Below are positions 13,341-34,000 of a DNA stretch of 64,000 bases, piece after piece. The stretch is from Isoetes taiwanensis (lineage: Eukaryota; Streptophyta; Lycopodiopsida; Isoetales; Isoetaceae). Under the pieces are notes generated by a model. The model was not told where the DNA came from. It saw nothing but the letters and a program-made list of their open reading frames with translations, and searched no databases. The translations under genes and the position numbers were made by a program. The stretch's first letter is position 1; every line of letters begins with the position of its first letter. The stretch covers positions 312,284 to 376,283 of the forward strand of contig JAJEKV010000094.1 in assembly GCA_021234155.1 (NCBI GenBank). The letters run 5' to 3'.

Positions 13341-13596
13341 TAAGGATCAACTATATTTACCATGTCAAAAACCTATGCTCATTTATCATACTATCAAATT
13401 GTATAAATGAACCACCTTGCATAACTGTACACTTAACCATGTAAAACAATAATATTTGTTTATCATATTATAAGACCATATTACCAAACTATGTTGCATA
13501 ACCATACATGGTTTGTAAACTTTTTGGCCCATATACTAGTACTGATTTAAATGTTTGGCTTTCACTAACAAAGCATGGTTAAAAAGTCATACTGAT
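13341..13596. repeat. AACCAT/ATGGTT-rich subterminal region of element 1
   Basis: The words ACCATG, AACCAT and ATGGTTT recur in both orientations up to a boundary word TTTTGGGTGCCTTGTG at 13599-13614. The same boundary word occurs inverted at about 40065-40078 (CACAAGGCACCCAAAA), and as TTTTGGATGCCTTGTG near 45447. In each case an ATGGTT-rich block lies on one side. Confidence 0.5.
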
Positions 13597-14107: not shown

Positions 14108-14153
14108 GTTTGCTATTTGAGAATAAGAAGTGTCAACCCAAGGAGAAGACTGC

Positions 14154-14686
14154 TATTCCGGAATACACGTTAGCAGAAAGTTTGAACCACACGTTTTCGA
14201 TTTACATAGAATTAAGGAAGTGTCCATGAGTGACCTTTAAAAGGAAATTTTTTGGCGTTCAGTTGTGTATTCCGGATTCGACGCTCTAGCCGTTCGCATC
14301 CAGCGCATTCGAACTTCTTCTGCAGGAACTTATTCCGCTTTGCATAGCGCCAAGCATGGAGAGGTAAGGGGAAAAAGTACAATGTACGGGTTTGCAAAAG
14401 TGTTGTTTAGGTAGAAGCCAAAAGTGTATTCCGGAATACATTTTGGCCTTTTGTAAGTAGCCAAAATACACTTTGGCTACTATCGACAAGCCAAAGTGTA
14501 TTCCGAAATACACCTCGGCTTAACCTAAAAGCCAAGGTGTATTCCGGAATACACTTTGGCCTTTCAGTAGCTCTCTTTTCACTACAAAAAACGTAAATTT
14601 AGTGCAAATTTAGCTTTTCTTTTAGCTCAAACAGACTACGCTTTGTGTGTTTTAATCTAGATGTTTGTCATTTTTATTCCGGAATA
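14154..14686 (+). repeat. Palindrome cluster A (TATTCCGGAATA), intergenic part
   Basis: Copies start at 14154, 14269 (changed half), 14427, 14499 (one mismatch), 14540 and 14675. The best copy is an 18 bp perfect palindrome, GTGTATTCCGGAATACAC, at 14537-14554. Several are preceded by AAGCCAAAGTG or AAGCCAAGGTG and followed by ACACTTTGGC or ACATTTTGGCC, so the symmetry sometimes extends further. They lie between the proline-rich gene and the methyltransferase gene, where a shared promoter is expected. Further copies lie in the methyltransferase introns. Confidence 0.95.
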
Positions 14687-14744
14687 TACTTTTCTGTTTC
14701 TTTTCACTAGTTCTAATGTAGTTAGCCACTGTGATTTTGCAGGC

Positions 14745-15180
14745 AAGAACAGAGTGTCCCTAAGCCGAAGAGAACCATCAAGATCACTAGTAGAAAACCT
14801 GCATCGGAACAAGGACAGGAGACTGCTACGCCACAAATTTACGAGAATTTCCAAATGCAGTGGTTCGTTACACGAGGCTTCGCAGGAAAGTACAGCAACA
14901 TAACTTTCCTGTACGTTTGTCGAAGCTCAGAACAAAAAAGATATGATGACTCTGAGTTCGAGTGTATGGGCTCAATACAGCACATGGAACCTGTTGCTGG
15001 GTAGTTCAAGCAACAGGCAAAATTGTCCTTCCGGACATCACAAGGCTTCATCATCGTCAATGCAGCTTACTTCAAGTTGGTCAACGTGTAACCTCAATGA
15101 CTTTACAAGTACTGCGCCCACTACATAAACAAGTTGGCGTTGTCCACTATTCTTGGGATGGTTTCAAGCAGCAGAAGTGA
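14745..15180 (+). pseudogene. Upstream (N-terminal) coding stretch of methyltransferase copy 1
   Basis: After an acceptor-like TTTTGCAG at about 14743, one frame runs QSVPKPKRTIKITSRKPA, then YENFQMQWFVTRGFAGKYSN and FLYVCRSSEQKRYDDSEFEC, up to a stop near 15004. The next frame continues WVVQATGKIVLPDITRLHHR to GVVHYSWDGFKQQK and stops at 15178, overlapping the start of the main exon in a third frame. The composition looks coding. The two frame changes suggest damage or unrecognised introns. I recognise no domain; it may be an N-terminal DNA- or chromatin-binding module. Confidence 0.45.
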
Positions 15181-17897
15181 AGCACTAGACTACAATGCTT
15201 CTGAAGATGAAGAAGGGCGTGGAGAAAGCAGTAGTGAATCTGGTGGTAAAGATGTCGACGCTGAGTTCGTGGAATCGGAACCTGAAGCATCACCACCACC
15301 ACCAAACAAGCAAAGACAGACTGTGACTGCTAAGGAGCCAAAAAAAAGAAAAATCGTGCAACTTGCAATAGAGAAAACACCTCAGGAATCTAGCAAAAAG
15401 GCAAAAGGAAAGGGCAAGCTCCCAGGAGTTGCAATAAAAGAAAAAAAAATTGACAAAACTGCAGAGAGAATGGAAGAAATAAACAAGCACAAATACGTGC
15501 AAGGTGTCATTTACCTTCCAGTCACATGCATGAAGTTGCCATCCAAGGACGAGACTGGAGAGAGGCCACTTCAAGTAAGAAAACTCCACGCTGACCACGT
15601 TAGAAACTTGAAGGACCGGATAAGGAGCAATTCAAATGCCCATGTTGCTCCAATAGTAGTGCTTACTGACAGGAATCAGTGCCTGCACCCGGCATATTAT
15701 GATAAAAAGTGTGTTGATCAGTACACGCACTATGTGCTGGGTGGAAACCACAGCTTCAAGGCACGCCAACAACTGTTTAAGGAGAAACAGAATTCTAGAT
15801 ACCTCTCTGTTCTCTGTGTGGTGTATTGCAGCCTGACTGACGAAGAGGCAAAGATAGTGGCCAATACATATAATGCTGATAACGAGTACAAACTCAAAAT
15901 GAGTTTTGTTAACAAAATAAGATTTATGCACAGAGAGTACTTAATTTTTAAGGAAAATTATGGTGAAGACCTTAAGAAACCTGCGCCATCTCTGGAGCTA
16001 AAGGAAGCGTGCGCAATAGAGTGCTGCCTCAAATATGATGAAGCAAATAAGAGGCACTCCTTAATCAGCCACGACAATTGGTTTCAACTCGCCTTCAGGG
16101 ATGGCAGGGTAAGAACTTTTGTATTCTGGAATAGCCCTTGCTCTTAAGTATTTTGTTTTTTCTTCATGGAAACTTAGTATTGTGTATTCCAGAATATAGT
16201 AAGCTGATTTTAACTTGTTTTGGTGCAGATTTGGGACTTGCAAAATGAAATTTTTACTGCATTTGAGCGCGAGGAACTAAAAAGCAAAGGGAAAGCCTCT
16301 GAAAAGAAAAAAGGCACAGACGTGTCAAAAAAGGAAATGACAATTACAGTTTGGAGAGAGCTGCAGGGCTTTACCGACACCGCCATACTTGAAAGAGTAC
16401 TCCCGAAGGTGGTGAATAAGGAGTTCACCTTCGAAGAGATGTCCAAAGGATTGCACAAGTAAGCTTAGTGTATTCCGGAATACGTTAATGTCTTCTGCTT
16501 GATTTTTTCGAATCTTCTAGCTCCAGTGTATTCCGGAATACGCAATGTGTTTATATGTTTTTTGTTAATTAGCCAAAAGAACGTTGCATGCCAGACATGC
16601 TTGATGGAACAACTGAATGTGAATCATGGGAAAGGTACAAGGAGCTCTACCCGGTGGCCACTTCAGATGAGCGTATCATACAATATGCTCCTAATTTTGA
16701 AGGTTGGGTATATTTTCTACTTTGTCGACTTTCGTTTTTTCTTCAGCTAATTGTCCATTAATTAACTTCAAATGCATGTGCAAAACAAGGAAAAAAACAA
16801 AGACATTTCTGAAGGTTTCATGCACCTTCTGAAGCTTGTTCATGAGGAACGGACCTTGGCTGACAGGAGGCAATTAGCGATTGAACCTTCCGACTATAAG
16901 AAGTTTGCCTTGTTCGACCAAGACAATCTTTTTTCAATCATTCAAGGCGACTGTACTAAGTTGGTGGGAACTATCAAGCCCCAGAATTTTACCCTAGTTA
17001 TTGCGGACATACCTTATGGGTTCAAAATCAAGGACAGCCGTTATGACGACCTACCTTTCAGGAACTCCGAGTTCAATAGTTTTAAAGATGGTATAAAGCA
17101 GATAACAACGGCTAAACACCAGCGGTTGGTGGTGTTTCACTCCAGTATACAAGCAGGGATGGTCGAAACCAGCTTTAAAAATTATTTCGGATCCCCTGCT
17201 CAAGCAGGCTATGAGAATTTAGTTTGGTGAGTCTTTATTCTGGAATACACCTTCTTTCTAATGCTATTCTGGAATAGTAAACTTCTTTCTTAGTTGCTAG
17301 ATTGCTAACTACACTTCTCTTTCAAAGGTACAAAACAAATATAAATTACCATGCTGGAGGCCCCATGTTGTTAAGCAAGCCCGAGGTTGTTAAGCAAGGT
17401 AGAATACCCGCATGTTGCCTACTTGACCTTCGACGGCAAGAGGACAATGGAGCACTTCAACACTTCTGGATGCTCTGACTTTTCCAATGTCTTAGAGTTT
17501 CCAGCAATGTTGCAGAAGCTGCAGGACCCAAGCGCAGGGTAGAATCGTCAATCACTATCAGAAGCCCCAGAAGCTAATCAACCATCTTATTGACATGTTT
17601 TCACGTCAAGAAGACTGGATACTTGATGCTTTCTCGGGCTCTGGTATTACCATCGCCTGCGCACTTAAGAAGGGCCGCAACTGTGAGACAGTGGATATAG
17701 ATAAGGAGGTCGTGAACTTCATTAAGATGAGATTGGCTGCACTGCCTAGTTTACCAGACAAGAATCAAGAGCTAGGTGCCAAATCCTCATCTGATTTCGC
17801 CAAAATGACATCATCAAAAATACAACTGCCTTTTGCTAGCTCCACAGAGGACGAGGTCACTTTTGCTGAAGGATGTGGCTCTAGTAGTGGAAATTGA
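15134..17897 (+). pseudogene. ParB-like / beta-class DNA methyltransferase fusion, copy 1 (element 1)
   Basis: Probable exons are 15134-16108, 16229-16458, 16573-16702, about 16790-17226 and 17328-17897, with GT-AG introns. Exon 1 encodes an acidic Ser-rich start, a Lys-rich stretch and a ParB/sulfiredoxin-like domain (about residues 110-290): LQVRKLHADHV, NAHVAPIVVLTD and the box VLGGNHSFKA at about residues 200-210. Exon 2 begins IWDLQNEIF. Exon 4 holds the methyltransferase catalytic block IADIPYGFKI (Asp codon 17006). Exon 5 holds HYQKPQKLI and the SAM-binding block LDAFSGSGIT (17625-17650). Catalytic motif before SAM motif is the beta-class order of N6-adenine/N4-cytosine methyltransferases. 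A duplicated 19 bp segment (near 17377-17398) and a 1 bp shift near 17542 break exon 5, and the exon 2-3 phase does not fit, so this copy is probably inactive. Copy 2 at 24-27 kb shares every block. Confidence 0.85.
16122..17276 (+). repeat. Palindrome A copies inside the introns of methyltransferase copy 1
   Basis: Copies are at 16122 (TATTCTGGAATA), 16185 (TATTCCAGAATA), 16471 and 16529 (both perfect TATTCCGGAATA), and 17236 and 17265 (TATTCTGGAATA). They fall in introns 1, 2 and 4, two per intron, and none falls in an exon. Some start within 15 bp of a 5' splice site. The C-to-T or G-to-A changes at the central CCGG look like methyl-C deamination. Confidence 0.93.
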
Positions 17898-18500
17898 AGA
17901 CAACATCTAAAGCGTATATTAAATCACCTGAGCAGGAGAAGCCGGTTCAGGAGAACATTGCAACTACAAGCACACACCATGAGGAAGATTATGATATTGA
18001 TCTTTGACTCATTGTGTGAAACATTTTTCAGATTAAAATCTTCTAAAACTGATATTGAAAATTTAATTTATTATTATTTATTCCCATCAATTTTGGTATT
18101 TTTTAGGTCTTGCTTGTCTAGATTACACAGTCAACTGTAAAGTTTGCTCTTTTCAGCTAACAAGTGACAGAAAAGGAAACAATTAGGAATATTATGATTT
18201 TGAAGTTACACTTGTTGTCTGTAGCATTCTAGTGTTAACATTAACTTTGCCTTCAAAACTGATGTATTCAAAATTCAGATTAATGCTAACGTCATTAATT
18301 CTTTTAAACTAAGATGTTTCTGAGGTCTTCATTTCATGGATTGTATAGTCAGCTGTAAATTTCGTTCTTTTTAGCTGTGACATTACATAGAACGAAAGTG
18401 TACACCTACTGGGAAGCTAAAATGCAAGAGAAAAAAAGTTTACCCTTACAAGATCCTTTACCTCGGCCAAAACGTTCACTTCTAGGAGCATGCCATGTTT
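17898..18500. other. 3' flank of element 1, no gene seen
   Basis: AT-rich sequence with the word AGGTCT or GAGGTCTT followed by a TAGTCAGCTGTAAA / CAGTCAACTGTAAA segment twice (about 18105-18145 and 18325-18365), an imperfect direct repeat of about 220 bp period. No coding signal is recognised. Confidence 0.4.
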
Positions 18501-18527
18501 TTTTAGGGCATCTTTGAAACGGAAGTT

Positions 18528-20480
18528 GTGCAACACTCCCGTTTCAAATGCAACCTTGTTCCCTCTATAAAATGCCTTTCCCTACATTTAAAAGGACACA
18601 ACAGAAACTGTTTCAGAATCACATCCGTAGACACTGGAATTTCTCTGCTAGACAGGTATTTCCTACACCTGCTTACTTCCAGATTTGACCCCGTTACCTA
18701 CATCGAGTACAATAAACAATATACTACTACATGTAGACCGTACATTGTCCTTAAGCCCACCGATCATCTAGAGCAGAAACCCGCAGGCGCAACCCAAAAC
18801 ATCATCCACGAGAGAACAAGAGGACAGTTAATCTGTAGAATACAACTACTAGTTTCAAAAGTTGGAGAGCCTTTCTACCTTAGACTCATCTTACTCCACA
18901 AAGCCGCATGATCTTAGAACAAACTCAATCCATGATGAAAAATAGTACGAAACATATCAGAAAACCGCCCAGGCTATGGGACTAATTGCACCAGCAACCA
19001 AAACCATAGCAGTAATGCAGCAGGCAATCTCATGCCTACAGACTCCATCACAACTATGATTCCTATCCGCGGTTCTAATACGAGATTCCGAACCAGCACT
19101 CCAACTATGGGAAACATTTCAAGACCAGATGATCGTTGACTTCGTACAACAATACCTAGAAAACCAATTAGCTGCCATCAATTAAAGCCTTCTCACCATC
19201 AACATCTTAAACGAGCATGGAACCAGCGCTGAAGCTTTTGGTCTGCCTTCACACAACATCCCATACAGAGAAATACAGAATGAACTCAGCAAATTCCCCG
19301 ACCATGAAGAGTATCTTACAAAGAGCTCAATTATGTTCGTGAACCAAAACCAGACCTCAATCTACACATATATATATATATGCAAACTTATCAACAACAA
19401 AAATTCTCCAGCCCCAATCTTCGTGTATGGAAAAGCCAGAACAGGAAAAATATACGTACTCAGTGCCATCTGTCTCTACGTACAAGGACTCAATCAAATA
19501 ATCTTACCACGCGCCACTATGGCATTAGCATCTCTACAGTACCTCGTCGGAAGAATTTCACACTCTCCTTTTCAAATACTCGTCATCGACAACAATATTG
19601 GAATCTATTCACTACTCGAACCACATTCTCCAAGGGCCCTATTGATCAGCACCGCAACGGCAATCATATAGGACGAATTTCCCATGCAAACAGAGCAGTC
19701 ATAAAGGCAGTTGATATCCTTCTACAAAACATAGCAGGCGTAGCCAGCCCCTTCGGAGGCAAGCTACTTATAGCAGCTGGTGATTTTAGACAGATCGCTC
19801 CCGTTGTCCAACGAGGAGGAAAAACAGCAATAATAAACTCATCTATCATCTCTTCCCACCTATGAAACCACTTCAAAATCCTAGAGCTTACTAAACCAGT
19901 AAGAAACGCAACTGATCTAGAACTCATACGATTCGTTGATGAAATCGGAGAGGGCCATCTACTCAATGACATTTTGCTAACACTATTCAAGATAACAACC
20001 AAAATAGGGGACACCGTCAACTTCTTATCTAACACATACATATTACTAACACCTATCCTATATGAGAGGAGAGCATTCCTATCTCCCAAGAACATCCCCG
20101 TCGACGACTTCAACATCGAAATCATATGAATGATTGCTTAGCAAACTATAGAAGCTACTTTAGCATCTACAGACTCACAAAAAAATGACCAAACCATCGA
20201 GGACCATCCAATGGCAATGATAAACTTCCTCAGCGGCTACAAACACCCAGTGCTTCCAAACATGAACTCCAATTAAAGACCAACACCGTATGCCACATCA
20301 CAAAAACATTGGACAAGGACAGAGGACTCATAAAAAACGCAAGGATCATGTATGCTCAATGCACACCAAATTCGTGACTGTCAAAGTTCTAACAGACCAA
20401 CTACGGCACGTGGGAAACATGCACCCCATATCCCGAGTTGACTTCTTCCACCAACCAGACAACTGGCCCTGGACAATTAT
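18528..20480 (+). pseudogene. Helitron RepHel helicase (Pif1-like) remnant
   Basis: Blocks of a Helitron helicase are readable in order across shifting frames. RIQLLVSKVGEPFYLRLILLHKAA lies near 18834-18907; this is the block in which the family has GE-FYLR-LL. AQAMGLIAPA lies near 18970, and a Walker A-like PIFVYGKARTGKIYV near 19414-19460 (family G-GGTGKT). The plus-strand block FGGKLLIAAGDFRQIAPVV lies near 19750-19810 (the GDFRQ motif of Pif1 helicases), then ILELTKPVRNATDLELI near 19880. TVCHITKTLDKDRGLIKNAR lies near 20286-20345, where the family reads LRN-DP-KGLCNGTR. Frameshifts and stops make it dead. It could be a relic of the autonomous partner of Helitrons 1-3, but no termini were found around it. 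Confidence 0.8.
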
Positions 20481-20900
20481 ACTCTTAGATGTTTACTAAC
20501 CATATGGGACAAAGGATAGTTATAAGGCTTATGATTCCCACAAGAAAATATGATAGAAATATGCTTAAGCTGAAAAGCAAAGCTACTATCATTGTCATCA
20601 GCAAGCAGGAAACTAGCAAGTCCATCTTTCTTGAACGACATCTAATGCAGTGTGAAACCAGAGGGAAGAGAAGGAAGAACTCCAATCAAAATAACTTCAT
20701 TTGCAAAAACTAGAATTCGAGATAACTTGATCTAAGTGGTATTTAATTAAAAGTGGGACTCATTCCATTCCCATTTTTCGAAACCACGTTAATTTACACG
20801 AAAAGCACCGGCCGAAAACTATCCTTAATTGATTTTTGTCTAGAACTCTTGCATCCCGAGCTTTCCTCAGGTTTTCCCCGGATAGCGAGTCGAGAACAAA
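20481..20900. other. Unassigned spacer
   Basis: No family recognised. Short open frames overlap on both strands. The left boundary of outer element 3 should lie in or near this stretch, but I cannot identify a terminus. Confidence 0.35.
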
Positions 20901-20974
20901 GAACAATGCAAAAGCAAAACAAAGGAAATTCATTAAAGATTGAAACCAAAGCTCTAGTTGAAAAAAAAATTTTA

Positions 20975-21358
20975 TTAATAAATTGAATAGATACAATGTA
21001 TTTTACATGGGGCCCAGGGGACCATGGCGATCTTCTTTGTCACTCTGATTACATCATCTTGGTAGGTGGTCCACCTTAGGGGATTAACTTTGCGGCGCCT
21101 TCTTCTGCCATTTGTAAGCCTTGGAGGCAACACGAAGAGTGTGGAATGCCTCACGATGGAGTGCCTCGCGGAACTCCCGTACGACCATCCACGGGCTTCT
21201 CCACTTTCGCCTCCATGACTTTTCATCGAATATGCTCCTTCCCCAACCTCAGTGGATATTATGCAATGCTTGCAAGATGCTTTTTGAGCTTCTGGGGCTG
21301 TCTCAAATTTCTTGGCGTGTTCTTTATCCCAGAGGGTGTGCATAACATCCCAATTCAC
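20975..21358 (-). pseudogene. Short coding piece at the left part of element 3, unknown
   Basis: The frame from 21358 reads MNWDVMHTLWDKEHAKKFET and EAQKASCKHC. After a shift a second frame reads KWRSPWMVVREFREALHREA and HTLRVASKAYKWQKKAPQ. The basic, Lys/Arg/Trp-rich style looks like real coding sequence but matches no family I can name. It is minus-strand, like the phosphatase gene, and could be its last exons or a separate gene. Confidence 0.35.
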
Positions 21359-21609
21359 GAAACAACCTTATTCAAAGGCCGGGCAAAGTGTAAACGTGGC
21401 GGGGATGCGATGCCGAGAACGGTATTTCTTACGCCTTGGCGGGGATCATCTGCTTTGGTGGTCTCACGAGATGCACGAGCGGGATACGTCTTTGGGTTAG
21501 GATCGTGCAGAACAACGCAAAGGAGAGTCTGATGATTAACAATTACGGTGCCATTAGTCAAAGCGAAGAAAAGAATGTTGAAATCAAATTACAATGGAGA
21601 ACATTCATT

Positions 21610-21960
21610 CCATATAACTGCATCATCCAATGGCGTGGGAAGTAGTGTCTTTCTAGACTTCGCGAAGTCGAGAAAGGCGAAAAAAAGTTAAAATGCGACC
21701 ATTCTCATTAGAATATAAGTGCATCCAATCACACGGGAAGCATACAAATGGTTTAGATCCAGCGAGACAAGCGGTGCCTTTCTGTTCGCGTCGAGAAAAG
21801 GCCCAAAACAATGTACAACCATTATCATAATAGATTGTGGCTGCATCCGATCCTGACAAACAAACATACAAATGGTCTCATCAACGGGACAAGCATGCCT
21901 TTCTCGACTCGTTGGTCGAAATAAAAACTTCGATATACAAGTATATTCATTACAAAATGT
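21610..21960 (+). repeat. Three tandem units of about 120 bp, each with a palindrome B site
   Basis: Units start near 21615, 21721 and 21841, each with GCATCC(A/G)ATC and, in the last two, CATACAAATGGT and ACAAGC. Each unit carries one palindrome B: CTTTCTAGACTTCGCGAAGT with its mirror half at 21649-21676, CTTTCTGTTCGCGTCGAGAAA at about 21774, and CTTTCTCGACTCGTTGGTCG at about 21896. The palindrome was apparently amplified together with flanking sequence. Confidence 0.75.
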
Positions 21961-22039
21961 AGTACATTTGTTCATGTTTGTTTAAATATTCACTGGTTGA
22001 CTATCGGCGGCCGGTCACTCTTCTTGATCACCAAAATAT

Positions 22040-23204
22040 TTGCCGTCCATAGCTTTCATCATGCTCTGCTCTGGATCCGGGTTCCGTGAGGCTCGGATAG
22101 TTTCTAATCACATCGGCGACAAGAATGGCAAAGCGGGATTCGCCAAGCGGACAAAGTCGAAAGACAACCACCTATCCATCTCATACTCTTGGTCGATATA
22201 CCTTAGCAAGGATTGTATTTTCAGTTATGATAACACTTGTAGGCGAGTCGTCTATGATCGGCGTGTTGTGTTTGCCATAGTCCGGGAATTGCTCATAAAC
22301 CCTGTCCAACCTTTTCACCATAATATGCTTCCCCTTTGTGATGGCTTGGATCGAGGTAAACACATGCTTTCGACCCTTTTGTTTCCCAAGCGAACTTGAA
22401 CTTCAAAGCTGGAAGGCCGAGAACACCAAGAACATTGACAATATTTTCTTTTGCCATACAAGACCATATGGCCGCCGAATCCCCATTCGGGCACCATTCA
22501 ACAATTTCCTTTGCTCTAGCCTCGGATACCGCGATTTTATGCTTTCCGTTTTTTTCGGGATCTGCGAGGTGTTAAGCTCGAGGGGCGTCTTTATCGTGGT
22601 ATCTTTGCAGCTAATACTCCATTGGCGTCAAATATTACAAAAGCTTGGCGGGACCATCGGATCCGGTTGGAGTTTGGCTCGACCATATTTCGGTTCATCC
22701 GGGATCCATATCGCGGGATCATTATTTTTTCAGGTCCTTTCTTGCTGCCCGCAGTGTCTTGCTCTTGATTGTCTTTGGGGTTTGCATTGTCCTCCTTGCG
22801 ACTAGATACTGTCAATGATCCGGAGTTGTTGGCATCGATCTCCCTGAAATGATGAGAGATGTCAGAAAGAAAACGAGTTTTCTCGACTCGCGAGTCGAGA
22901 ATGGAAAAAAGTTAGTCCCAAAAGGTTTCTCGACTCGCGAGTCGAGAAACATCGAGAGAGAAAAGTGAAATCACCTCAATCTCAGATTCTCAATAATGTG
23001 TTCGGTAGCATTCTGGTCTAAACCTTCGACATTCTCGTCTCCGTCAGGTTTCTCTCCCTCGCTCCCAGCTTTGTCTTCGTCATCGTCGTCCTTACTGCTT
23101 CCATTTGTCTTCCTCCCTTTGAAATGCTCATGAAGCAGATCCAGGTATGACCGAATGTAGGTTTCATTCCATAAAGCATAAACAAGGTTTAAAATGAAAC
23201 GCAC
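22040..23204 (-). pseudogene. FCP1/NIF-like HAD phosphatase region, C-terminal part of the element 3 gene
   Basis: Blocks in order on the minus strand: an acidic linker KTNGSSKDDDDEDKAGSEGE (near 23110-23050); an intron-like gap with two palindrome B copies (22950-22880); FVIFDANGVLAAKI at 22636-22600, matching HAD motif I (Asp-x-Asp/Asn-Gly) of the NLI-interacting-factor group; EWCPNGDSAAIWSCMAKENI near 22515-22450, matching the family block with WSS--K-NV; and DRVYEQFPDYGKHNTPIIDD near 22310-22245 followed by SP, matching the NT--IDDSP block. A tail LRYIDQEYEMDRWL then SFDFVRLANPALPFLS follows. Members dephosphorylate phospho-Ser/Thr, for example on the RNA polymerase II tail. Motif I has N (family D/N) at its third position. 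Frameshifts between blocks suggest decay. Confidence 0.7.
22880..22948 (+). repeat. Palindrome cluster B, two perfect 22 bp copies
   Basis: Positions 22880-22901 and 22927-22948 are identical perfect 22 bp palindromes with the core TCTCGACTCGCGAGTCGAGA. They are 47 bp apart and lie in a likely intron of the HAD phosphatase gene, just as palindromes A and C lie in methyltransferase introns. Confidence 0.97.
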
Positions 23205-23210
23205 TTATTT
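23187..23210 (+). repeat. Left terminal inverted repeat of element 2
   Basis: Perfect inverted match to 34563-34586. It is followed at once by AAGAAGTGCGTTT, so that AAACGCACTT and AAGTGCGTTT form a 10 bp stem with a 7 base loop at 23197-23223. At the right end the second AAGTGCGTTT lies as a direct repeat instead. Confidence 0.93.
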
Positions 23211-23900
23211 AAGAAGTGCGTTTGAAAGATTCCTTTATAAAAATTGGAAACTTGAAAAAAATGGACAAAATAGGGAGCAAAATAGATTGTTGAGCAAATA
23301 GCATTCGAAATACCCCAAAAAAAGCAACATTTTTGAAGCCTTTTCATTTTTTAAAAGGGCAAAAAAAAAAAAGCTTGTTTTGAGGAGAAAGACATTACAT
23401 TTAAAAACTCATTAAGTATTTGTTGTTGAAAATAGAAGGAAATATAGTTTTGTGTTTTTGCAAGCTTAATATAAGTACTAAGAAAATCAAACATAGAAAA
23501 GAAAAAGAGTCTGAAAATCATGAATCAAAAAGAATTGTTCTAATTAAGCATTGTTGAAGAGAAAAAGTTTTTAGTTGAAATCTTCATCAAAATATATTAA
23601 AATTAAGTAACACATAGATTACAATGAAAGATAGTTTAAAATCTTTCTGCGTATAAATTTATCACGGAGGTGGCTCTTCCATCCACGGGGACTCTCTCTC
23701 CCCCCATAGATCGGTCTCTTTGCGAGGTTATAATAGCGAGACGCCCCTCGATTCCAATAGTGCAGTGCAGTGTTTCTCGGCTCGGGCACCACAGGCTCCA
23801 GATCGACGAACTCCACCTCCTCATTTCTTCTTCCGTATTAAGTGGAGGTTTGGATTTTGCAATATGTGCCTTTTACATCGCCGGCACCATTTTTGCTCCC
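23211..23900. other. A-rich left subterminal region of element 2
   Basis: AT-rich with runs such as GGGCAAAAAAAAAAAA near 23357. No coding blocks of the methyltransferase are recognised before about 23930. Opposed short open frames at 23619-23824 and 23670-23954 are overlapping and unassigned. Confidence 0.4.
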
Positions 23901-24385
23901 AATTCCTCGTTTTCATCGGAAAGGATTCACAAGAGCTTATCCTGGTCCCGATGAAACTTATTTTGTCGGTCTATGTCGGACGGAACAACATTAAGCCCCT
24001 TAAAAGGCAAACTCTTCAATGGTGCACGAGCGCAGAAAATCGTCTAAGATCCAGTCCCTGTGGCGAAAACCATCATATCAAATTATTTATAAGTCGCTGT
24101 GGCTTCTGATAATGGGACACCACAGCGCCTTGTCGCTGTGGGTCTCTTAATTTTTGCAAAACCGCCGGGAACTGAAACGCATTGCAGGGAGGAGTCTTTT
24201 CATTCTGCGTATTAAAGTGAACCATGGTTTTTGGCGTCAAAAAACCCATGTGAAAGTGCTCGAAACAACTTACTAGCGCGGACCACCACCATGACCCTTA
24301 ACGTTTGTTTTAAGCACCCGCTAAACACAACAATGAAATATTAGTAAAATAAAAACAAGGAAAATAAGTTAGCTCAGTAGTGTGG

Positions 24386-24544
24386 CGGTATAAATTTATA
24401 CCAGGGTTGCCTTGCGGTATAAATTTATACCAGGGTTGCCTTGCGGTATAAATTTATACCGCGGCTGCAAACCGTATAAATTTATACAGACATTGCCTTG
24501 CTATATAAATTTAAACCTTAGGGTTGTGGTATAAATTTATACCG
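24386..24544 (+). repeat. Palindrome C array, intron between the catalytic and QKP exons of copy 2
   Basis: Six copies of GGTATAAATTTATACC (some with one or two changes) at a period of about 31-33 bp. The first spacers are near-identical AGGGTTGCCTTGC. The full 16 bp palindrome predominates here. Confidence 0.95.
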
Positions 24545-25617
24545 TGGAGTTACTAAAAAGAAAAGCGTTAAATGTTAAGCTTACCAAATGGGTTTTCAAA
24601 GCGGCATTACAGGCGACTCCCATAGGTTTAAGCAGGACATTGTTTGTAGGTCCGAATGGAAAATGATGACCCTCCGGTTAGCGGATAAGGTGACTTCCTT
24701 CGGGCCTTCAAAAAGAGTGGACTTGCGATGCGTGAAAACCTCCCCTCGTCAAAAGCGGCTGTCGCTTAATTTTGAAACCATAGGGAATATCGCAATGCAT
24801 AATGTGAAGTTCTGCTTCTCCAAAAAGTGTCCCCACCTCGTCTGGATCACCCTCAACAACTCTTGTTTTGCAGTTTGACCAAACGTTGTAAATCTTTCAT
24901 AAGAAGTGTCAAAGGCGCTGGTGGCGACCTCCTTTCCATTGGATTGCCTTAAGTCTCCGCCTCTTCCTTGGCCCTCACGAACCAGGGTTTAAAAAATCCA
25001 AATGGAGCCCTTTTTCTTGTTACGTAAGAATATTGTGAGAAAGGCACAAACCGCAGAGGAACATATTTTTAGCAAAACTTACCCGACCACTAAAGTTAAC
25101 GGCGTGCTCTCTAATAATACTATCGATTGGGTACAACTTGGGTAGAAGCTTGCACTCCTCCGTCCTCAAGGTTTAGCTTTGCTTCATTAACTTCGGCCTG
25201 GCGGGGTAACAATGTCTTCGGCTGCAAAGAGAAACATGTTGTAAGACCGAGAAAAATGTAGAAGAAAAGGCGGCATTGCAAATGTGGCTTCGTCTTAGCT
25301 TCCTTGGCCATTTTGGTCTAATGTAAATTCCTTGGCCCGCGACTTTTCCAAAGGCGAACAAAATTTCTTTGCTTTTTAATCCACAATCGCTGCGTCCGGG
25401 TACAATGCTCATATTTTTACTTTTAATTCTCCACCCTTTTTGGTTTTTCCTATAGCGGGCTGGCTTGCTCTTTAAACTCACCATCTTGAACATACAAAAA
25501 ATTCTTTCTTGAAGATCCCACACACTGTAAATGGACAAACGCCATTAGTTTAGTGTTGCTTAAGCGTAAGAGAATATGTTGCGATCTACTTTCTAAATGC
25601 GCTGGTGTGTAGTCCGC

Positions 25618-25977
25618 GGTATAAATTTATCGCCGTCCACGGACCTGGTATAAATTTATCTGCGACTGAATCGCGGTATAAATTTTTCTGCCGTGCCTGG
25701 TCGTGATATAAATTTATCCGTGCCCATTTCTGATATAAATTTATCACCGTGCCCTCCACCGGTATAAATTTATCGCTACGACTAGGCCGCGGTATAAATT
25801 TATACGCGACTAGGGAGCGGTATAAATTTATCGCGTCTTGGGGCCAAGATATAAATTTATCCCGCTGACTATTAGTCAGCGGTATAAATTTATCTGCGTT
25901 CCGGAACTGCGATAAAATTTATCACCGTCCCTAGTCGCTGCATATAAATTATCTTGTACCCACGGTATAAATTTATC
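25618..25977 (+). repeat. Palindrome C array, 13 sites in a 360 bp intron of copy 2
   Basis: Thirteen sites at a spacing of about 25-32 bp, mostly in the 14 bp form GGTATAAATTTATC followed by GCG, TGCG or ACCG. The spacers are GC-rich and not conserved. The array fills the intron between the FRDG-equivalent and VWDLQE exons, the same intron that holds palindrome A at 16122 and 16185 in copy 1. Confidence 0.95.
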
Positions 25978-27030
25978 ACGAAGTGCAAGGCACTTGTAAC
26001 CACGCTAAACATACTACAAAACATAGAAAAGAAGCGACTTCTTGCTTGACCATCTCGAATGCCGGTGAAAGTAGTTATCGTGTTGCTTTTCGCCATAATG
26101 GGCTTCTTATCATAGTCATAGGAGGCGACACTTTCATCGCACCTTGGGCTTCTCAGCTCCTGCGGCTTGTTCTTTTGCTTTTTAAAATCCTCTCCATACA
26201 TTTGTTTAAATTCCACGTACTCACGATTGCATGAAAGCGGATCTTGTCTATTAAACTCATTTTTAATCTGAAGTCATTGTCGAGATTATGACTCCGCGGA
26301 ATGACTTTTGCTTCTTCATCTGTTACACCAACGTATATATGTGCTTCTCACGCTCTTCCACGCCGTTCACGGCTTTCCTCTTTTTGCTAGTTCTTTCCTT
26401 GCCTTGTAACTATGTGTGCCTCCAAGAACGTGGTATGTGTAATCTTCAAGTCGACCTTCTTGTAATCTTTTAGTTGGTTGCACTGACTCCTGTCCACCAT
26501 AACAACTAGTGGCGACACATGGGCATGAGGATTTCTTCTCATTCTTTGTTTCAGTATAGCCACATGTGCCGCATACAGCTTCCGGACCTGTAGCACTCTG
26601 ACCCCATCTTCATTTTTAGGTGGCCTCTTAATGGTGCTCAATGTCAAAGAAATAGTTTGCTTTAGCAGTTTAGTGTCATTCACCCGCTTGAGAATAGCAC
26701 TTGATTTATCTGCAGGCTTCACAACAATATCTGCTCCGGGCCTTCTGAAGAGCTTCTGTTGACTCCTCTATAGTCAAAGCCTTTGTGCCTCTAGATTTCT
26801 TTTTTGTAGGAGCCTGTGTATCTACTACGAGGGAATGCTTTCTACCCTTTCCCTTTGTTACCACTGGTTCCTCTTCCTCTTCTTCTTCTACTTCCTCGTC
26901 CTTCTCTTCAAACTCTTCGATAGGAGTCGGGTACCAGAGACCTTTGACCAACTTTGTTTCTTCGCAAAGCACAACTGACATTAAAATGTCCACTATATCC
27001 TGTAATGCAGGGTTAAGTTAGGAAGATGAC

Positions 27031-27044
27031 GGTATAAATTTATC
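27031..27044 (+). repeat. Single palindrome C site in the first intron of copy 2
   Basis: One GGTATAAATTTATC followed by GCG lies between the exon ending at 27057 and the exon starting at 26993, again in an intron. Confidence 0.85.
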
Positions 27045-28365
27045 GCGTAAAAGACACTAAACAATACTTACATGGCCACTCTTGTAATTGTCAGCCACGT
27101 ACTCTTGCACATCTTTGGGTTTGCACATGCTTATTCGAAGCATTTTACTTTCAAGAACGTAGAAGACTTCCCCCTTGTCATGCATGCACTTCATTAAGAT
27201 TTCATCATCGACCTCTGTAGCAATAAGGTTGACAATTTGTGGTGGGGTAATAATCGTCACTCTTGTACTTGCCCTTCCCGATTGATGACACAAGTAAAGG
27301 TGCGCCTCGATGGGTTTGCTCTCTCTTGCACCCATTTGGGCGTACCACATCCGGTTTCGGTTCGTATGTGCGTGGCTCTATTGGTGCGACCTTTGATGGT
27401 GGCCCTTGTTTACAAACGATCTTGGGGCTGGAAAAAGCATAAAGAGGCCATTTTTATGCAAGAAACAGAACCTTTTTCGACCTTTTGTACCATAAAAACA
27501 GTAAAAATAGAGGCGAAAAGAGCATAAAATCTACACTAAATTATCACTTTACTAGTTACGGTGCCCAGCGTTGCTGGGCATAATTGGTAACCTGCAAATG
27601 TTGAAAACTTGCTCGGCATAATTTGGCAACTTGTAAATGTTGGAAACTTGCCTTGTTGGGAGCATATTTTATGTTGTCTTTAATTTGTGTCCCAACTTAT
27701 TTCTCGAGCTTATTCAACGAACATTTTTCACCTAACTATTTGCATGTCTTTTAATTCATTAGCAACATAAACATACTTATTAACACTACTTGATGCAATC
27801 GAAGGGCCCTTTGGGCATCTCCAAGTGTTTGTTTATTGGGTATCAACACTTAAAAACATCATCAAAGATGTTTCTTTGAAACAACTATTGTATATGCAAG
27901 GATGGTTTTTTTAACAACTATTTATATTTGTACATGCAATAACTATCTTTGACATCGTTTTTGCACAATATTCCATGTCATTCTAGCTTTGTTACATGAA
28001 CTTGGAGTCTCTCTTATAATGTTTGTTCTCCTAACAATTCAATATAGTGTCTATTTTCTACATATATTCCTATTAGGGGATTAACATTTTACAGTTGACA
28101 AAAATATGAATTACAAAAAATATGAATTACACTTCTGGCATAGGCCAATGCCGATAATAATTTTACTCTATGGAAAGACCTACTAATCTGCTTATTTTAT
28201 GGAGTGCATGTAGATCTAGACAAATACGTTGCAAGTTTAGCCCATAGTTTAGCCCATCTTTTTCTGTAACATGTCTATGCCTTGCAATTTTGTAAGCTTT
28301 ATACATGATACAACAAATTGACACTGCAAGGCACCTTTGGGTTAGTTCAAATCTCTGTTTCTTCA

Positions 28366-28425
28366 TACATGCCCTCTCACATTGGGCAATGCCATTACAT
28401 GCCCTCTCACATTGGGCAATGCCAT
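28366..28425 (+). repeat. Perfect 30 bp tandem duplication
   Basis: Two adjacent identical copies of a unit that begins ACATGCCCTCTCACATTGGG, within Helitron 2. The perfect identity points to a recent slippage event. Confidence 0.9.
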
Positions 28426-28776
28426 TGCAGAATATGACATATACCAGGGACATCTAGACAACTGTGTTTTGCTGCTATTGTAGAGGGTAAATACTGTAAG
28501 TGGGATTGAAACTCCTTATCCAATGAAGCTAAATATGTTAAAACGCTGGCAAAGCCTGACATGCTTCAATAAAAGGTATATGTTAGAAAGTGAACTTTTA
28601 TGCTATCTTACATGTTTGAATATAAGCTACGCAAACCAAATCCAAAGCAAATAAACAGATCCTTTTTTGAAACCAAAAGATTTTTTGCTTCATCAAAAAA
28701 CATGTCCCCTCCCATGCATGTTCTGAGGGAAGGCTGAACATGTGGCCAGTTTGAAGACTGTTGCAGAAATTCACAA

Positions 28777-29933
28777 TCATATACCAGCAAATTCAATAAA
28801 AAAACAACTGATGCGAATTTTCCTAACCAGGCTTTGTGCACTTAAACTTCTTGAAAATGCATGGTCACCACCAGCTCCACAGTTGCGAGGGCTGGTCCCT
28901 GGCGTGCTCCCTGAAGATGTTGCACACTGCTCTAGAACTGGATCCAGCATATGGCCTCTTGTTTCTGAAACCAAGTCCTGGTTGGCAGTAGAAGAACTTG
29001 GTGACTCCACCTCTAATTCTGCTATGGAGCTAGCAGCATCTGAGCAGGTTGGAACACCTCCTGACTGAGTGGTACCTCGAGATGCCTTGGCTGTAAACAT
29101 GTACTTTATTCCTTAGTGTTTTAAACCTTATACTTCTGTCACATGTCAGAATATGAATTTTCCATTGGAAATTCACCTGATGCAGACATATATAGCAGGA
29201 TAATAGAATCCAGCGGAAGCTCTTCACAAGCAGTAGCTAAGACCTGTGAATGGAAAAGATATAATCCATCAAGAAATGGAAAGTAAAACAGCAAAGCATC
29301 TAACCAAAATAGGGTCTTACCAATAATAACCTCGGTATACTTGAACGATAGAGAATATGCTTTTCAGAATTTGGTGGCAAAGTGGGATCCTTTATTTCAT
29401 CGACAATGTTTGTTCTTTGAAGTGTCATTTCAGGCAAATAATTTTGAGCATTCTCTGGAGACTTTGAGCAGATAAAATCAGGATGCAGATAGCTAGAGCA
29501 GATAGTTGAAGATTTGCCCTTTTGCAACATAGATCTAGAGCAGGATGGACGGTTTCCAGATGCGATAGAGACTTCAGAGCTTGGATTTGGAAGCCGATGG
29601 CTTCTTACATTGTCACTGGTTAGTAAAAGGAAAATAGATGCCATCTAACCTTTGTAAAGAGGAAATAGGCTTGAGTGCTACAGCCGCAACCGGCATAGCT
29701 AAAGCGCGGGGACGCCCAACAAAACCCTGCACAGAAGAGGGGGGCTGAACCTGATGGGTTGGATCTGACCATCGGATTGCTACAGGCCATTCTTTGCTTT
29801 GGTGTTGTATGTCAAGCTCTATAGAATATCTTGCCAGAGATCCAACGACCTCTTCTGAGCCTTCGATTTTTAGGAGTTCCAGATGCATCTTGCTTGTAAC
29901 GCTCCCTTCAGCAGGGAGTTCTATTGCGGGCAA
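28777..29933 (-). pseudogene. Captured host-gene pieces in Helitron 2, unknown family
   Basis: Three minus-strand stretches look coding. 29933-29640 has LPAEGSVTSKMHLELLKIEG, then EEVVGSLARYSIELDIQHQS and WSDPTHQ. 29644-29300 has NVRSHRLPNPSSEV and SSYLHPDFICSKSPE. 29100-28777 is Ser/Gly-rich. The first two are joined by a 35 base segment that starts GTTAGA and ends TACTAACCAG, with intron-like borders but too short for a normal plant intron. I read it as exons of one host gene carried by the Helitron. I cannot name the gene. Confidence 0.45.
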
Positions 29934-30141
29934 GCCCTAAAAATCCTGACCAGTCGAAATTACTAAGATGGATCCCAGCCATCCAATCTAGGGCTGGATC
30001 CAAATCCAGGAATTACAGCAAAACATTATAATATAAAATTTGTGTTATTTAGGCTTAAAACGCAAGAATATTACTGAAATATTAAGGTTTGCGACACTTC
30101 TTCAAGCACTAGACACCAAGATTCCAAAATGGTTCTGGATC

Positions 30142-31014
30142 GGTATAAATTTATCTGCTGAGACGAAATGGTATAAATTTATCTGCGAACCATACGCTTC
30201 TGATCGGTATAAATTTATACCGCGGTGCTTTCGGCGGTATAAATTTATCTGGATGTTCGAGACACGCGATCGGTATAAATTTATCTGCAAGAATTTTCGG
30301 GTATAAATTATACCGATTGGTCTGGACCGGTATAAATTTATACCGCCGAGCACTGCTTGTTACTTTTATCCGATTCAGAGAATTATATCGGTATAAATTT
30401 ATATCGATCGCGTGTTCGAACAGGCGGTATAAATTTATCTCTGGCTGATTATGAAGCCCGGTATAAATTTATACCCATTCAGTAACCATATCGGTACTCA
30501 ATTTATACCGAAGCGTGGTGAACGCAGATAAATTTATACCGCTAGATTCGAGCGGTATAAATTTATACCGATCGAGAACCATATCGGTATAAATTTATAC
30601 CGCAGCCGCCACACTCCAGCGGGTGATTAAAACAAAAGAGAAACTAGAACAATGCGGGTAGTAGACTTCACGCGGCCATGACCCGATAGACCCGCTGCGT
30701 ATAGGCGTTCGCCCAGCAAATAGGGGGTATAAAGCGCCTGCTTGGCGCCGACTCCGGTGGAAATATATATAGAAATAGAGGTGGTGGGCGCTGGCTTAAG
30801 TACCTCTCGCTAAGTGCGCTTCATATAGCTTCTCCATAAAGTTTTCAATACAAGTGTCAATGCGTGAGTTTTAGGTATAAATTTATCTCCTTTCGTTCTA
30901 TGTTGCCCTCCTCAGTATAAATTTATACCATCTCAGGTATAAATTTATCTCTAATCTGCGCCTTAAGTTTTTCTTCCCTGTATAAATTTATACCAACTCT
31001 AATATAAATTTATC
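30142..31014 (+). repeat. Palindrome C array in the divergent intergenic region of element 2
   Basis: About 14 sites lie in 30142-30602 and five more in 30873-31014. They mix the full 16 bp palindrome GGTATAAATTTATACC with the 14 bp form in both orientations. The last site ends a few bases before the ATG of the plus-strand gene at 31022, so the array overlaps the likely promoter and leader. A TATA-like TATATATAG lies near 30765. Confidence 0.95.
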
Positions 31015-31021
31015 TTACCGT

Positions 31022-34000
31022 ATGGCTCGAGAGAAAAGCTGCGAGCCTCCAACTCTTGTTCGCGGGGCTTCCTCTGCAATGGCTTTCACACCTCCTCAAC
31101 GGACACCGAGAAGTAGCCACGAATATTCTACATCCAGGCATTTCAACACCCACTCACGGTTGAGTTTACTCCGGCAAGACCACCTCGGCTTCCACCACCC
31201 GGTTCAATTTACTCCACCACACCACGCTCACGAGCGTCATGCGCCCCCACCAATGCGTTTCACCCCACCTCGGGCTAGAGAGGTCGGACTACCTCCTCCA
31301 ATTCATTTTAGTAACATTAAGCCCATAGTCCACCGTAGGCTCCCTCCCGCGGAGGCAAATCACACCAACTCCATCCATTTAAGCTAAATGGTACTACAAC
31401 AAATGGGGGCTTGATCGGCACCGAACTATCTGTGTTCTCACGACGCCCGGGGAGTCCAACTTCGTCCACCGGCCTCGATTACTTTTTCGAGAGAGAGGAA
31501 AGCACCTCCCCGGGCCTTGCCCACATCAAACCTCTCAAAGATCTACAAATTACACCTCATGTTGATCTCTCGGGGAAGAAACACCTCATGTTGATGTCTC
31601 CGGGGAGGGACCTACCAAAGCCACAAGACTCCATGTTGAATTCAAAGCCCCGCAAGTAAAAATCTTAAAGCGTAACTTACACAAGGCGGCATGTACAACC
31701 GTTAGAAGAAAGAAACTCATGGGCGAGGCTCACTTGCGGGCAACACATACAAAAGCACTTGTTGTTCTCAACGTTGTTTGCTTAAGATTGGACTAAAGGG
31801 AATTGAGGTTGCCGTTGATAGTTCTGAGTTCAATGACTCACCGCTAGACCAAAGGGGCTACTTAGCCTTCAATATTAGGCGGATGATGGTGAGAAGTTTA
31901 CTTACGGTGGTGGCCACACGTCACAATCAAAGCGGCCTTCAAATTGATTCATGCTTTAAGCGTGACGGCGACTTGACGCTGAAGAAAAGGCTTGACAAGA
32001 ATCCGGGCATCAATGACTCTTGCCATTCGGGAGGCATAACGAATTCATGCTCTTCAATGTGTTTCTGGATGGAAGGTTTCTTTAAGGAGTCTTGTGAGAA
32101 ACTCCCCTAACGACCCTATGTACCACTTGGTGACAATTTCCACGAAACAAGAAGTCTCGATAATTATAAGGAGATGTGTGTTGAAATTTGGAGAGCGGCT
32201 TTATGCCTTTACTCTTACTTTCACGTGCTTTCTGGAAAAAGAGTTTTCTCGTGTAGCCATTCCTAGAAAGCATAGGATGTCTGTTTGTGCTACATGCTCA
32301 CGAATTAAAAGCTTCGAGACAAAATGCAAGGACACTTCACACTAAAAGTAAGCTTCGGGGCGTGTTCTTGCCTAGTTCTACTTAAAGTAGGTTCTTTCTA
32401 AACATGTTTTCCTTTCCCGGATGCATTGAAGGAGAAACCCGAACAAAACCGCCTGAGAACAACAATCTTTGGAAAGGAGAAAATTGACAAAACATAGGAA
32501 AAAGAAAGACTTTGGAACAACCACTCAACTACATATCGGTTGTTATTGATGGAATGGACCGAAGAAGACCACCCTACCACATTTTGTCAATGTGCCTAAG
32601 GATCTTTCTTGAAGAAGATTTCATACATCGCATGTTGTTGGTGCTATGGTATTTAATGGAAAACTATCTTGCAAGGCATTTTTTTGAATTATCAAACATT
32701 CATCTTTGATCCAAATCTCACTATCACAATATTGAATAAGCTTCTTTCCAATCTAGAACATATCTGCCCGGGTTACGTATCTTCGACTAGATAACCACGA
32801 CAAGGGGAAAATAAGAATCGGCGTTGTTTGCTTACTTGTGCTATGCTAGTAGAAACAAATCTTCAAGAAGGTGAAGATTGGTTTCTGCTTGTTGGTCATA
32901 CACCGCGACCAAATTGATCGGATGTTGATGGGTTCTCTAAGCGTCTTGCTTTCGAAAAAAAAAAGCTCTAAGCACCTTACCCATGATTGAGGTCATCAAG
33001 ATTCCTACAATCCCTCGTCCGGACATCGAGTTATTGGAAGAAACTTATGATTTCAAGGAATGGATTTTTGAAAAAGAGATCAACTAGGTCAACGTGCTAT
33101 TGAGCCCTTGAGAAAACATTACATTCCAAAGCTCGAGATCAAAATTTCACTTGTAGATGGCAAGGCCATCTTACAAGGAAAGAAATATGCCACATCCTTG
33201 CGATGGCGACCCGGCACAGTATTCAATTCATTACCAACATCCCCAATACTAGTTCCATGCTCTCTGCCCAGAGCAAATGCCTCTAAAAAGCTTGAAAGAA
33301 ATCACAAAGAGTAAAAAAGGAGGGAAGAGCATTTGACTCAAATAAATCATTGGATTGTATTGAGACAAGTATTCATCTGCTCTAACCACTTTGGGGGCCC
33401 GGATGCTTTATGGTGGCCTCAATTTTTTTTCGACAGCGTGACATGTTGCAAGCTTCATTAAAGGTCGAAGACCGGTTATATTCAGCGGCCATCTAGGCAA
33501 ACCCTCCTCAGCAAGTTGAGAATCAAGAGGAACATGTAGAGATATTGGCTAGCTTCAGGATGAAGATGACGAGAGTCATGTACACCGGCCCTAGGCATAC
33601 AAAGACAACAAGTTGCTTTCGAGTATCACGGTTCAGTTCCTCGAGATTGAAAAAGGAATGCTCATAGTTGTCCCAAATGATAATGATGAATCTGGGAGGC
33701 CATTACGCTAGCTAAAAATCTTGGAGGTAACAAGAGAGGATGGAATTCCCACTCAATTAAAAGTGCACTGGATGAGAACGACTGCTGCCAATGCTTTCAG
33801 TGGGAGTTATACTTTGGAGATGGTAAAAACAGGAGTGGGAAAGAGAGCAAAGTCCAAAGCAAAAATCTGGCTGTCATAGATCTATCCTGAAGTGAAGGTT
33901 CTTGCATATGACTTTGTTCATTTCTGTACGCTAATAAGTTACGTATGGTCACTCAAACTTTAATAAGGTCAGCATGTGGATTAGACAAACAAGCCAAAAA

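What the first reader, a model, noticed from the sequence alone, without database searches (positions are those of the whole stretch)
14154..31014. Each ParB-methyltransferase element carries its own private palindrome array
Element 1 (13.6-17.9 kb) carries about 12 copies of TATTCCGGAATA. Element 2 (23.2-34.6 kb) carries about 39 copies of GGTATAAATTTATACC or its 14 bp form. Neither palindrome appears in the other element. Both sets sit in the same two places: between the divergent genes and inside methyltransferase introns. ParB proteins classically bind palindromic parS sites and spread from them, and beta-class methyltransferases modify short sites. A eukaryotic element that encodes a ParB-methyltransferase fusion and is studded with element-specific palindromes suggests a self-recognition or self-methylation system that has diversified site by site with the protein. 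I know of no described plant system of this kind.
Basis: partly seen in the sequence, partly recalled or inferred. Interest (0 to 1): 0.95.

Follow-up and report, generated by a model that had tools for sequence, protein, structure and literature searches.

The report
Jumping genes with private palindrome tags
A large family of jumping genes in this eukaryote carries a bacterial-type DNA-methylating protein, and each sub-family examined sprinkles its own short palindrome through its non-coding DNA, which looks like an address tag that lets the element recognise its own copies.

Summary
Both elements belong to DNA transposon families with terminal inverted repeats, 4-bp target duplications, a DUF7869-type transposase gene and, divergently, a ParB-like/beta-class methyltransferase gene. 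Element 1 has 12 palindrome sites (TATTCCGGAATA, up to 2 mismatches), all outside my exon model; element 2 has 36 (TATAAATTTATA).

In the window's own 1.66-Gb genome, 30 of 30 fetched element-1 copies carry palindrome 1 and none palindrome 2 (up to 1 mismatch); 6 of 6 element-2 copies show the reverse. GTATAAATTTATAC occurs 12,556 times (reversed control 17). The two share a frame, GTAT-N6-ATAC. A third family, picked by its methyltransferase, then showed GTATGAATTCATAC (64 genome-wide, control 11; 36 of 50 listed places clustered). Sites persist where synonymous sites are saturated.

Best reading: family-specific recognition sites of an element protein, most likely the ParB-methyltransferase, for self-marking or anti-silencing, like Arabidopsis VANC/VANDAL. 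Such genes in algal transposons are published; limited searches found no published target sites. At 5 of 8 sampled palindrome-2 places I detected no element gene.

The parts
13565..14152 (-). Element 1: N-terminal part of the transposase gene, with repeated RLPPPF motifs; cut copy
   Evidence: 76-79% identical to the N-terminus of the transposase ORF in relatives; homology to L055 ends at 13617
14154..14279 (.). Element 1: 2 palindrome sites between the divergent genes (14154 exact; 14268 with 2 mismatches)
14356..17900 (+). Element 1: ParB-like/methyltransferase gene, exons about 14356-14363, 14743-16108, 16229-16457, 16573-16701, 16790-17226, 17329-17900; broken in this copy
   Evidence: exon model; PF01555 E=1.9e-13 on 17496-17897; motif IV ADIPYGF in 16790-17226
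14427..17276 (.). Element 1: 10 intronic palindrome sites (14427, 14499, 14540, 14675, 16122, 16185, 16471, 16529, 17236, 17265): 5 exact, 4 with one C>T or G>A at the central CpG, 1 (14499) with G>A at the next base
18535..18560 (-). Element 1: right terminal inverted repeat, exact match to the TIR taken from L055
23178..23210 (+). Element 2: left TIR arm (element starts 23181, TSD CATA 23177-23180)
   Evidence: 33 nt, 94% complementary to 34563-34595
23651..23664 (.). Element 2: single one-sided palindrome site (2 mismatches)
23822..26767 (-). Element 2: ParB-like/methyltransferase gene, decayed; matching exon pieces 26767-26013, 25523-25359, 24907-24608, 24276-23822
   Evidence: tblastn with element-1 family exons
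24388..24542 (.). Element 2: palindrome array in an intron (5 exact GTATAAATTTATAC, 1 with 2 mismatches)
25619..25978 (.). Element 2: palindrome array in the intron after the ParB-like exon, mostly one-sided GGTATAAATTTATC
27032..27045 (.). Element 2: single one-sided palindrome site (2 mismatches)
30143..30993 (.). Element 2: largest palindrome array, upstream of the transposase gene
30986..33852 (+). Element 2: decayed transposase gene with FTPP/PPPxRFTP-like repeats at the N-terminus
   Evidence: tblastn with transposase ORFs of L055; ORF list
34563..34595 (-). Element 2: right TIR arm (element ends 34592, TSD CATA 34593-34596)

Best explanation
These are DNA transposons whose sub-families each own a private ~14-18 bp palindrome of the form GTAT-N6-ATAC (N6 = TCCGGA, AAATTT or GAATTC in the three families seen). 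The palindromes sit upstream of, and in introns of, the methyltransferase gene and are recognition sites for an element-encoded protein, most likely the ParB-like/methyltransferase acting as a symmetric dimer. By binding arrays of its own sites, and probably by placing N6-methyladenine or N4-methylcytosine there, the protein marks copies of its own family and keeps their non-coding DNA transcriptionally open or controls transposition, without touching other families. Shown: private, conserved, mostly non-coding, recurrent sites in three families; methyltransferase family and motifs; purifying selection on the ParB-like domain. Inferred: binding, methylation, effect on silencing, and which domain reads the site (the N-terminal domain is the most diverged between families, so it is a candidate too).
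For: Mutual exclusion in 30 element-1 and 6 element-2 copies and in 5 more distant element-1 copies. Third family L057, found by its methyltransferase, carries GTATGAATTCATAC x4, 3 intronic and 1 upstream with unrelated flanks; genome-wide 64 against 11, 36 of 50 listed places in 11 clusters, four of them (L057's own included) with nearly the same 5-site layout. The GTAT-N6-ATAC frame was written down, before. GTATAAATTTATAC 12,556 against 17. Element-1 sites: 8 of 217 inside the ParB ORF, 209 outside, in 16 loci. Constraint: of 357 element-1 sites within 1 mismatch 153 exact, 171 changed only at the central CpG, 33 otherwise, although synonymous sites are saturated (pS>0.5 in 105 of 136 pairs) and ParB-domain pN/pS is 0.080. 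Element-2 flanks beyond CGG-TATAAATTTATA-CCG are variable in 66 sites, so the conserved unit is the palindrome, not a long tandem unit.
Against: No binding or methylation data. ParB assignment weak by sequence; three structure jobs failed. Counting sites within 1 mismatch hides sites that decayed further. Regular spacing (42 bp in 96 of 207 neighbour gaps under 150 bp, element 1; ~115 bp in the third family) shows that tandem duplication helps to spread sites, and in element 1 the conserved flanks reach about 12 bp beyond the 12-mer on each side, as a tandem unit or a longer site would give. At 5 of 8 palindrome-2 places no element gene was detected. Two of 6 element-2 copies (L044, L049) have only 1-2 sites in the 3 kb fetched. 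Motif IV is DIPY, not the usual DPPY. Only three families, so no formal test of co-variation. L057 is one fetched copy of family 3; its siblings are known from site positions and one methyltransferase hit only.
Confidence: 0.6

Rival explanations
1. The palindromes are binding sites of the transposase, as short motif arrays are for some other plant transposases (recalled), and the methyltransferase acts elsewhere.
For: The transposase differs between families as well (its N-terminal repeats are RLPPPF in element 1 and PPPxRFTP-like in element 2). The DUF7869 element at 45.5-51.7 kb, where no ParB-methyltransferase was detected, has no repeated palindrome, but that is one element and speaks rather against this reading.
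Against: Sites cluster between the divergent genes and in introns of the methyltransferase gene, not at the TIRs: in L055 (element 318-8428) the 15 sites lie at 1541-4795.
Confidence: 0.17
2. The palindromes are operators: an element protein binds them to control the shared promoter, and intronic copies are by-products; no genome marking.
For: Sites lie upstream of the methyltransferase gene in all three families; that this is a shared promoter was seen for families 1 and 2 only.
Against: Intronic sites recur in copies with saturated synonymous divergence; 5-18 sites within 1 mismatch per ~4-kb stretch exceed what an operator needs.
Confidence: 0.13
3. Neutral tandem-repeat drift: a short palindrome spread by slippage in each family and was carried along by transposition.
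For: Regular spacings; tandem units around three of four sites in L057; palindrome-2 places without detected genes.
Against: Only the palindrome survives while flanks differ (element 2; fourth site of L057); 10 of 12 positions of palindrome 1 hardly vary among the counted sites while CpG decays; the same frame recurs in three families.
Confidence: 0.07

Closest known systems
VANC/VANDAL sequence-specific anti-silencing system of Arabidopsis (PMC5735166, PMC10398659; passages read)
   Same: Transposon-encoded protein tied to short family-specific motifs arrayed in introns, intergenic and terminal non-coding DNA; motifs spread by tandem repeats; related families have different motifs
   Different: Here a methyltransferase-containing protein, a DUF7869-type transposon with 4-bp TSD, palindromic sites that share a GTAT-N6-ATAC frame; the VANC21 motif YAGTATTAY is arrayed in one orientation; anti-silencing is not shown here
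ParB-methyltransferase accessory gene of Sola1-1 in Ectocarpus and similar algal transposon genes (PMC12477816: abstract, passages and one part of the reference list read; Iyer 2011 and Petroll 2025 seen only as references)
   Same: ParB-like domain plus N4C/N6A methyltransferase, on the strand opposite to the transposase; authors propose that such proteins may bind and modify their own transposon
   Different: The word palindrome does not occur in that paper's main text and no target site is named in the passages I saw; the elements here have thousands of first-look candidate matches in one genome
Bacterial ParB/parS (recalled)
   Same: A palindromic site near the gene of its presumed binder
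   Different: Arrays of sites, eukaryotic transposon, methyltransferase domain; spreading untested; no significant ParB profile hit
Bacterial beta-class DNA methyltransferases (CcrM-like; NCBIfam CcrM E=2.7e-09)
   Same: Domain order motif IV then motif I; PF01555
   Different: DIPY in place of DPPY; sites much longer than a usual methyltransferase site

Membership tests
Beta-class amino DNA methyltransferase (N6_N4_Mtase) | PF01555 over cut-off and FxGxG motif I | tested here: met
   51.3 bits against cut-off 26.7; DAFSGSGTT in L055 and L057
Beta-class amino DNA methyltransferase (N6_N4_Mtase) | Catalytic motif IV (D/N/S)PP(Y/F/W) | tested here: inconclusive
   DIPYGF in element 1, L055 and L057; that I is tolerated at this place (NIPY in Erm enzymes) is recalled
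ParB | ParB N-terminal domain by profile or fold | tested here: inconclusive
   TIGR03764 E=0.018; no ParB family in Pfam at E<=0.1; no convincing PDB match; structure jobs failed
ParB | CTP-dependent spreading from parS | not testable with these tools
   needs biochemistry
TE accessory ParB-methyltransferase (algal) | Gene on the strand opposite to the transposase inside a TIR element | tested here: met
   window element 2, L055, L056
VANDAL/VANC | Motif arrays private to each family in non-coding DNA | tested here: met
   but palindrome-2 sites also occur where no element gene was detected
VANDAL/VANC | MULE transposase with 9-bp TSD (recalled) | tested here: not met
   TSD 4 bp in 3 of 3 elements read; transposase has a region like PF25273 DUF7869
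VANDAL/VANC | Loss of DNA methylation on expression of the protein | not testable with these tools
   needs plants or cells
Sola1 transposons | 4-bp TSD (recalled) | tested here: met
   CATA, ACAT, GAAA
Sola1 transposons | Sola-type transposase | not tested
   no Sola reference protein was compared
Restriction-modification | Cognate endonuclease | not tested
   no systematic search was made

The most novel reading that the evidence does not exclude
A eukaryotic self/non-self code: each transposon family writes N6mA or N4mC at its own palindromes through a ParB-methyltransferase whose specificity has been re-tuned in the central six bases of a fixed GTAT-N6-ATAC frame, giving many mutually blind anti-silencing or marking systems within one genome.
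Probability: 0.33. Interest if true: 0.95.

Novelty: new variant of a known kind. Interest (0 to 1): 0.82.

Why it matters
It gives the ParB-methyltransferase class of transposon proteins concrete candidate target sites, three of them, with a shared frame and a variable core, so specificity can be tested at once and predicted for further families. If methylation is confirmed it would be a transposon-borne, sequence-addressed adenine or N4-cytosine mark in a eukaryote, and a second, apparently unrelated invention of what VANC does in Arabidopsis.

Tried and rejected
Rejected or left: chance. ATGTGG palindromes at C4:6789-7008 and GCATGC words in L052 as further families: not followed, so neither shown nor excluded. 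GTATTGTACAATAC in L016/L056 (one copy) and L020: one place per copy in the methyltransferase gene, not an array. TTCTAGAA words of L012: look like a simple repeat; no ParB-methyltransferase hit there. Protein searches against 5.8 billion proteins gave nothing at E<=0.001 or E<=0.01; that tool needs shared words and similar length. PDB search: only four weak matches, none convincing. PHROGs and NCBIfam: methyltransferase families, the weak ParB hit, and a few other weak hits; Pfam also gave two weak unrelated hits. dN/dS with a multiple-hit correction was dropped because synonymous sites are saturated; pN/pS is given instead. A TIR search for element 1 inside the window found none; solved with relatives.

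Selection of copies: L014-L043 are the 30 best of 116 scored matches, the window's own copy included; L044-L049 are 6 of 150 picked by hand over the identity range; L050-L054 are 5 picked by hand among the weaker of the 116; L057 and L058 are 2 of 150 methyltransferase hits, picked by hand for odd open frames or profile coverage, before their palindromes were known. One search used 16 and 17 of the 30 loci, those with long open frames. L018 and L055, and L016 and L056, are the same copies.
Full report
What is there. Element 2 is a TIR transposon at 23181-34592 with TSD CATA. Element 1 is a cut copy: its right TIR is at 18535-18560, no left TIR was found in the window, homology with a full relative (L055) ends at 13617, and its methyltransferase gene has three in-frame stops and frame shifts. 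Two full element-1 copies, L055 (8.1 kb) and L056, have the TIR AACAAGGTTGCATTTGAAACGGGAGT and 4-bp TSDs ACAT and GAAA; the TIR of element 2 begins AACAAGGTTTAAAATGAAACG, so I take both to belong to one superfamily. One gene is a transposase with a DUF7869-like region and, at the N-terminus, repeated proline-rich motifs that differ between families. The other, divergent, gene encodes an N-terminal domain of unknown kind, a linker, a ParB-like domain and a beta-class amino-methyltransferase (PF01555 E=1.9e-13; motif IV DIPYGF, motif I DAFSGSGTT).

The palindromes. Element 1 has 12 sites within 2 mismatches of TATTCCGGAATA; by the exon model two are intergenic and ten intronic. Element 2 has 36 sites within 2 mismatches of TATAAATTTATA, of which 14 are exact; many are one-sided (GGTATAAATTTATC). 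Both exceed shuffled controls by far. The two sites share the frame GTAT-N6-ATAC, which I wrote into the notebook.

Family-wide test. The ParB exon of element 1 found 116 scored matches out of 3966 first-look candidates, that of element 2 150 of 3061. In the 30 best element-1 loci (the window's own copy included) there are 5-18 sites within 1 mismatch of palindrome 1 and none of palindrome 2; within 2 mismatches palindrome 2 appears once in 5 of 30. In 6 element-2 loci there are 1-18 sites of palindrome 2 within 1 mismatch and none of palindrome 1; within 2 mismatches one in 1 of 6. Two of these 6, L044 and L049, have only one and two sites in the 3 kb fetched. Five more distant element-1 copies have 2-13 sites of palindrome 1 and none of palindrome 2.

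Out-of-sample test. A PF01555 search gave 150 scored hits of 1443 candidates, all 150 over the cut-off. Two were fetched. L058 is of element-1 type and has palindrome 1 twice. L057 is a third family: its ParB-like stretch is 45-62% and its methyltransferase exons 44-64% identical to the other two families over the aligned parts, its N-terminal domain 24-28%. The only perfect 10-bp palindrome found more than twice in it belongs to GTATGAATTCATAC, four times: three in the intron after the ParB-like exon in ~115-bp tandem units, one upstream with other flanks. Genome-wide that 14-mer occurs 64 times against 11 for its reversed control. Of the 50 places listed, 36 fall in 11 clusters and 14 are single; four clusters, one of them L057's own, have five sites with nearly the same layout, and the four sites on contig C1059 lie beside another methyltransferase hit. 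By my own estimate the chance that a third palindrome would show the same four outer bases per half is about 1 in 256 with equal base frequencies; no call computed it.

Constraint. Among 17 open element-1 copies (136 pairs) synonymous sites of the ParB-like domain are saturated (pS above 0.5 in 105 pairs) while median pN/pS is 0.080; the N-terminal domain and linker have 0.33. Neutral non-coding DNA at that distance should hardly be alignable, yet the sites persist. Of 357 sites within 1 mismatch, 153 are exact, 171 differ only by C>T or G>A at the central CpG and 33 otherwise; sites further decayed were not in that count. The CpG change is what cytosine methylation usually leaves behind; CpG is depleted elsewhere in these loci as well (0.56-0.68 of expected in 5 loci examined). 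So the working motif of family 1 is probably TATTC-YR-GAATA. Its flanks are conserved too, as AAGGCCAAAGTG and CACTTTGGCCTT. In family 2 the conserved block is CGG-TATAAATTTATA-CCG, with variable flanks (66 sites). Sites avoid coding sequence: 8 of 217 lie in the ParB ORF of 16 loci. Neighbour spacing is 42 bp in 96 of 207 gaps under 150 bp in family 1; 28, 29, 30 or 32 bp in 37 of 65 in family 2.

Against the reading. GTATAAATTTATAC occurs 12,556 times. Of 8 places sampled from the head of that list (two of them, on C7 and C9, hold a single exact site), 2 carry methyltransferase-gene and transposase pieces, 1 only a DUF7869-like piece, and 5 no element protein at E<=0.001 in the 9.9 kb fetched. 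They may be shortened or non-autonomous copies, but that was not shown. The ParB label rests on a weak profile hit and on recalled resemblance. No structure could be computed. The transposase also differs between families. I have no binding or methylation data.

How it most likely works. An element-encoded protein reads its own family's palindrome. The ParB-methyltransferase is the best candidate: it is the gene studded with sites, its presumed relatives in prokaryotes bind palindromes or methylate palindromic sites (recalled), and its ParB-like domain is under strong purifying selection. The N-terminal domain diverges most between families with different palindromes, so the specificity may lie there. 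The outcome is probably protection from host silencing or control of the shared promoter and of transposition, as VANC does in Arabidopsis.

Literature. Ectocarpus Sola1-1 has a ParB-like/methyltransferase gene opposite the transposase, and the authors cite similar green and red algal genes and suggest self-binding and epigenetic modification (PMC12477816: passages, abstract, part of the reference list). VANC proteins bind family-specific motif arrays in non-coding DNA (PMC5735166, passages; PMC10398659, passages). Passages of PMC4455052 were seen for the Sola classification. Searches for ParB with transposon and methyltransferase terms (one search listed 15 of 441 papers) and for DUF7869 (none) showed no paper whose title or abstract start names such target sites; only open-licence papers are searched, and for most listed papers I saw only the listing.

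Noticed in passing
window 45510-51692: A further DUF7869-type transposase (PF25273 E=1.3e-29 on 47191-47616) with no ParB-methyltransferase hit and no repeated palindrome nearby; a single natural negative control.
   Followed up: partly
L042, L050 and L021, L031, L037, L039, L040: A shorter palindrome TATTCGAATA (palindrome 1 without its central CG) occurs 1-3 times in 7 loci, perhaps a variant site.
   Followed up: no
window 25619-25978 and 30143-31013: Many element-2 sites are one-sided, GGTATAAATTTATC, nearly all with the same orientation on the + strand; full palindromes are more common in the other copies fetched.
   Followed up: partly
L044, around 480-540: A much longer perfect palindrome is built around one palindrome-2 site (AACCTTGAAAGCAGTGCTCGGTATAAATTTATACCGAGCACTGCTTTCAAGGTT, by eye).
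   Followed up: no
window 13568-14152, 30986-31387; C4 12289-13662 and 14706-16004; L055: The transposase N-terminus carries repeated short proline motifs, RLPPPF in family 1 and PPPxRFTP-like in family 2; they may be family-specific docking motifs.
   Followed up: no
L007 (C4) 6789-7008: Palindrome CACCACATGTGGTG repeated about four times shortly beyond the methyltransferase end of the element-2 copy; could be a simple repeat or something of its own.
   Followed up: no
window 1578-3690: Long low-complexity GGAAAG-type satellite with open frames in several frames.
   Followed up: no
window 27500-30100: Stretch inside element 2 without matches to the element proteins, probably a later insertion between its divergent genes.
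   Followed up: no
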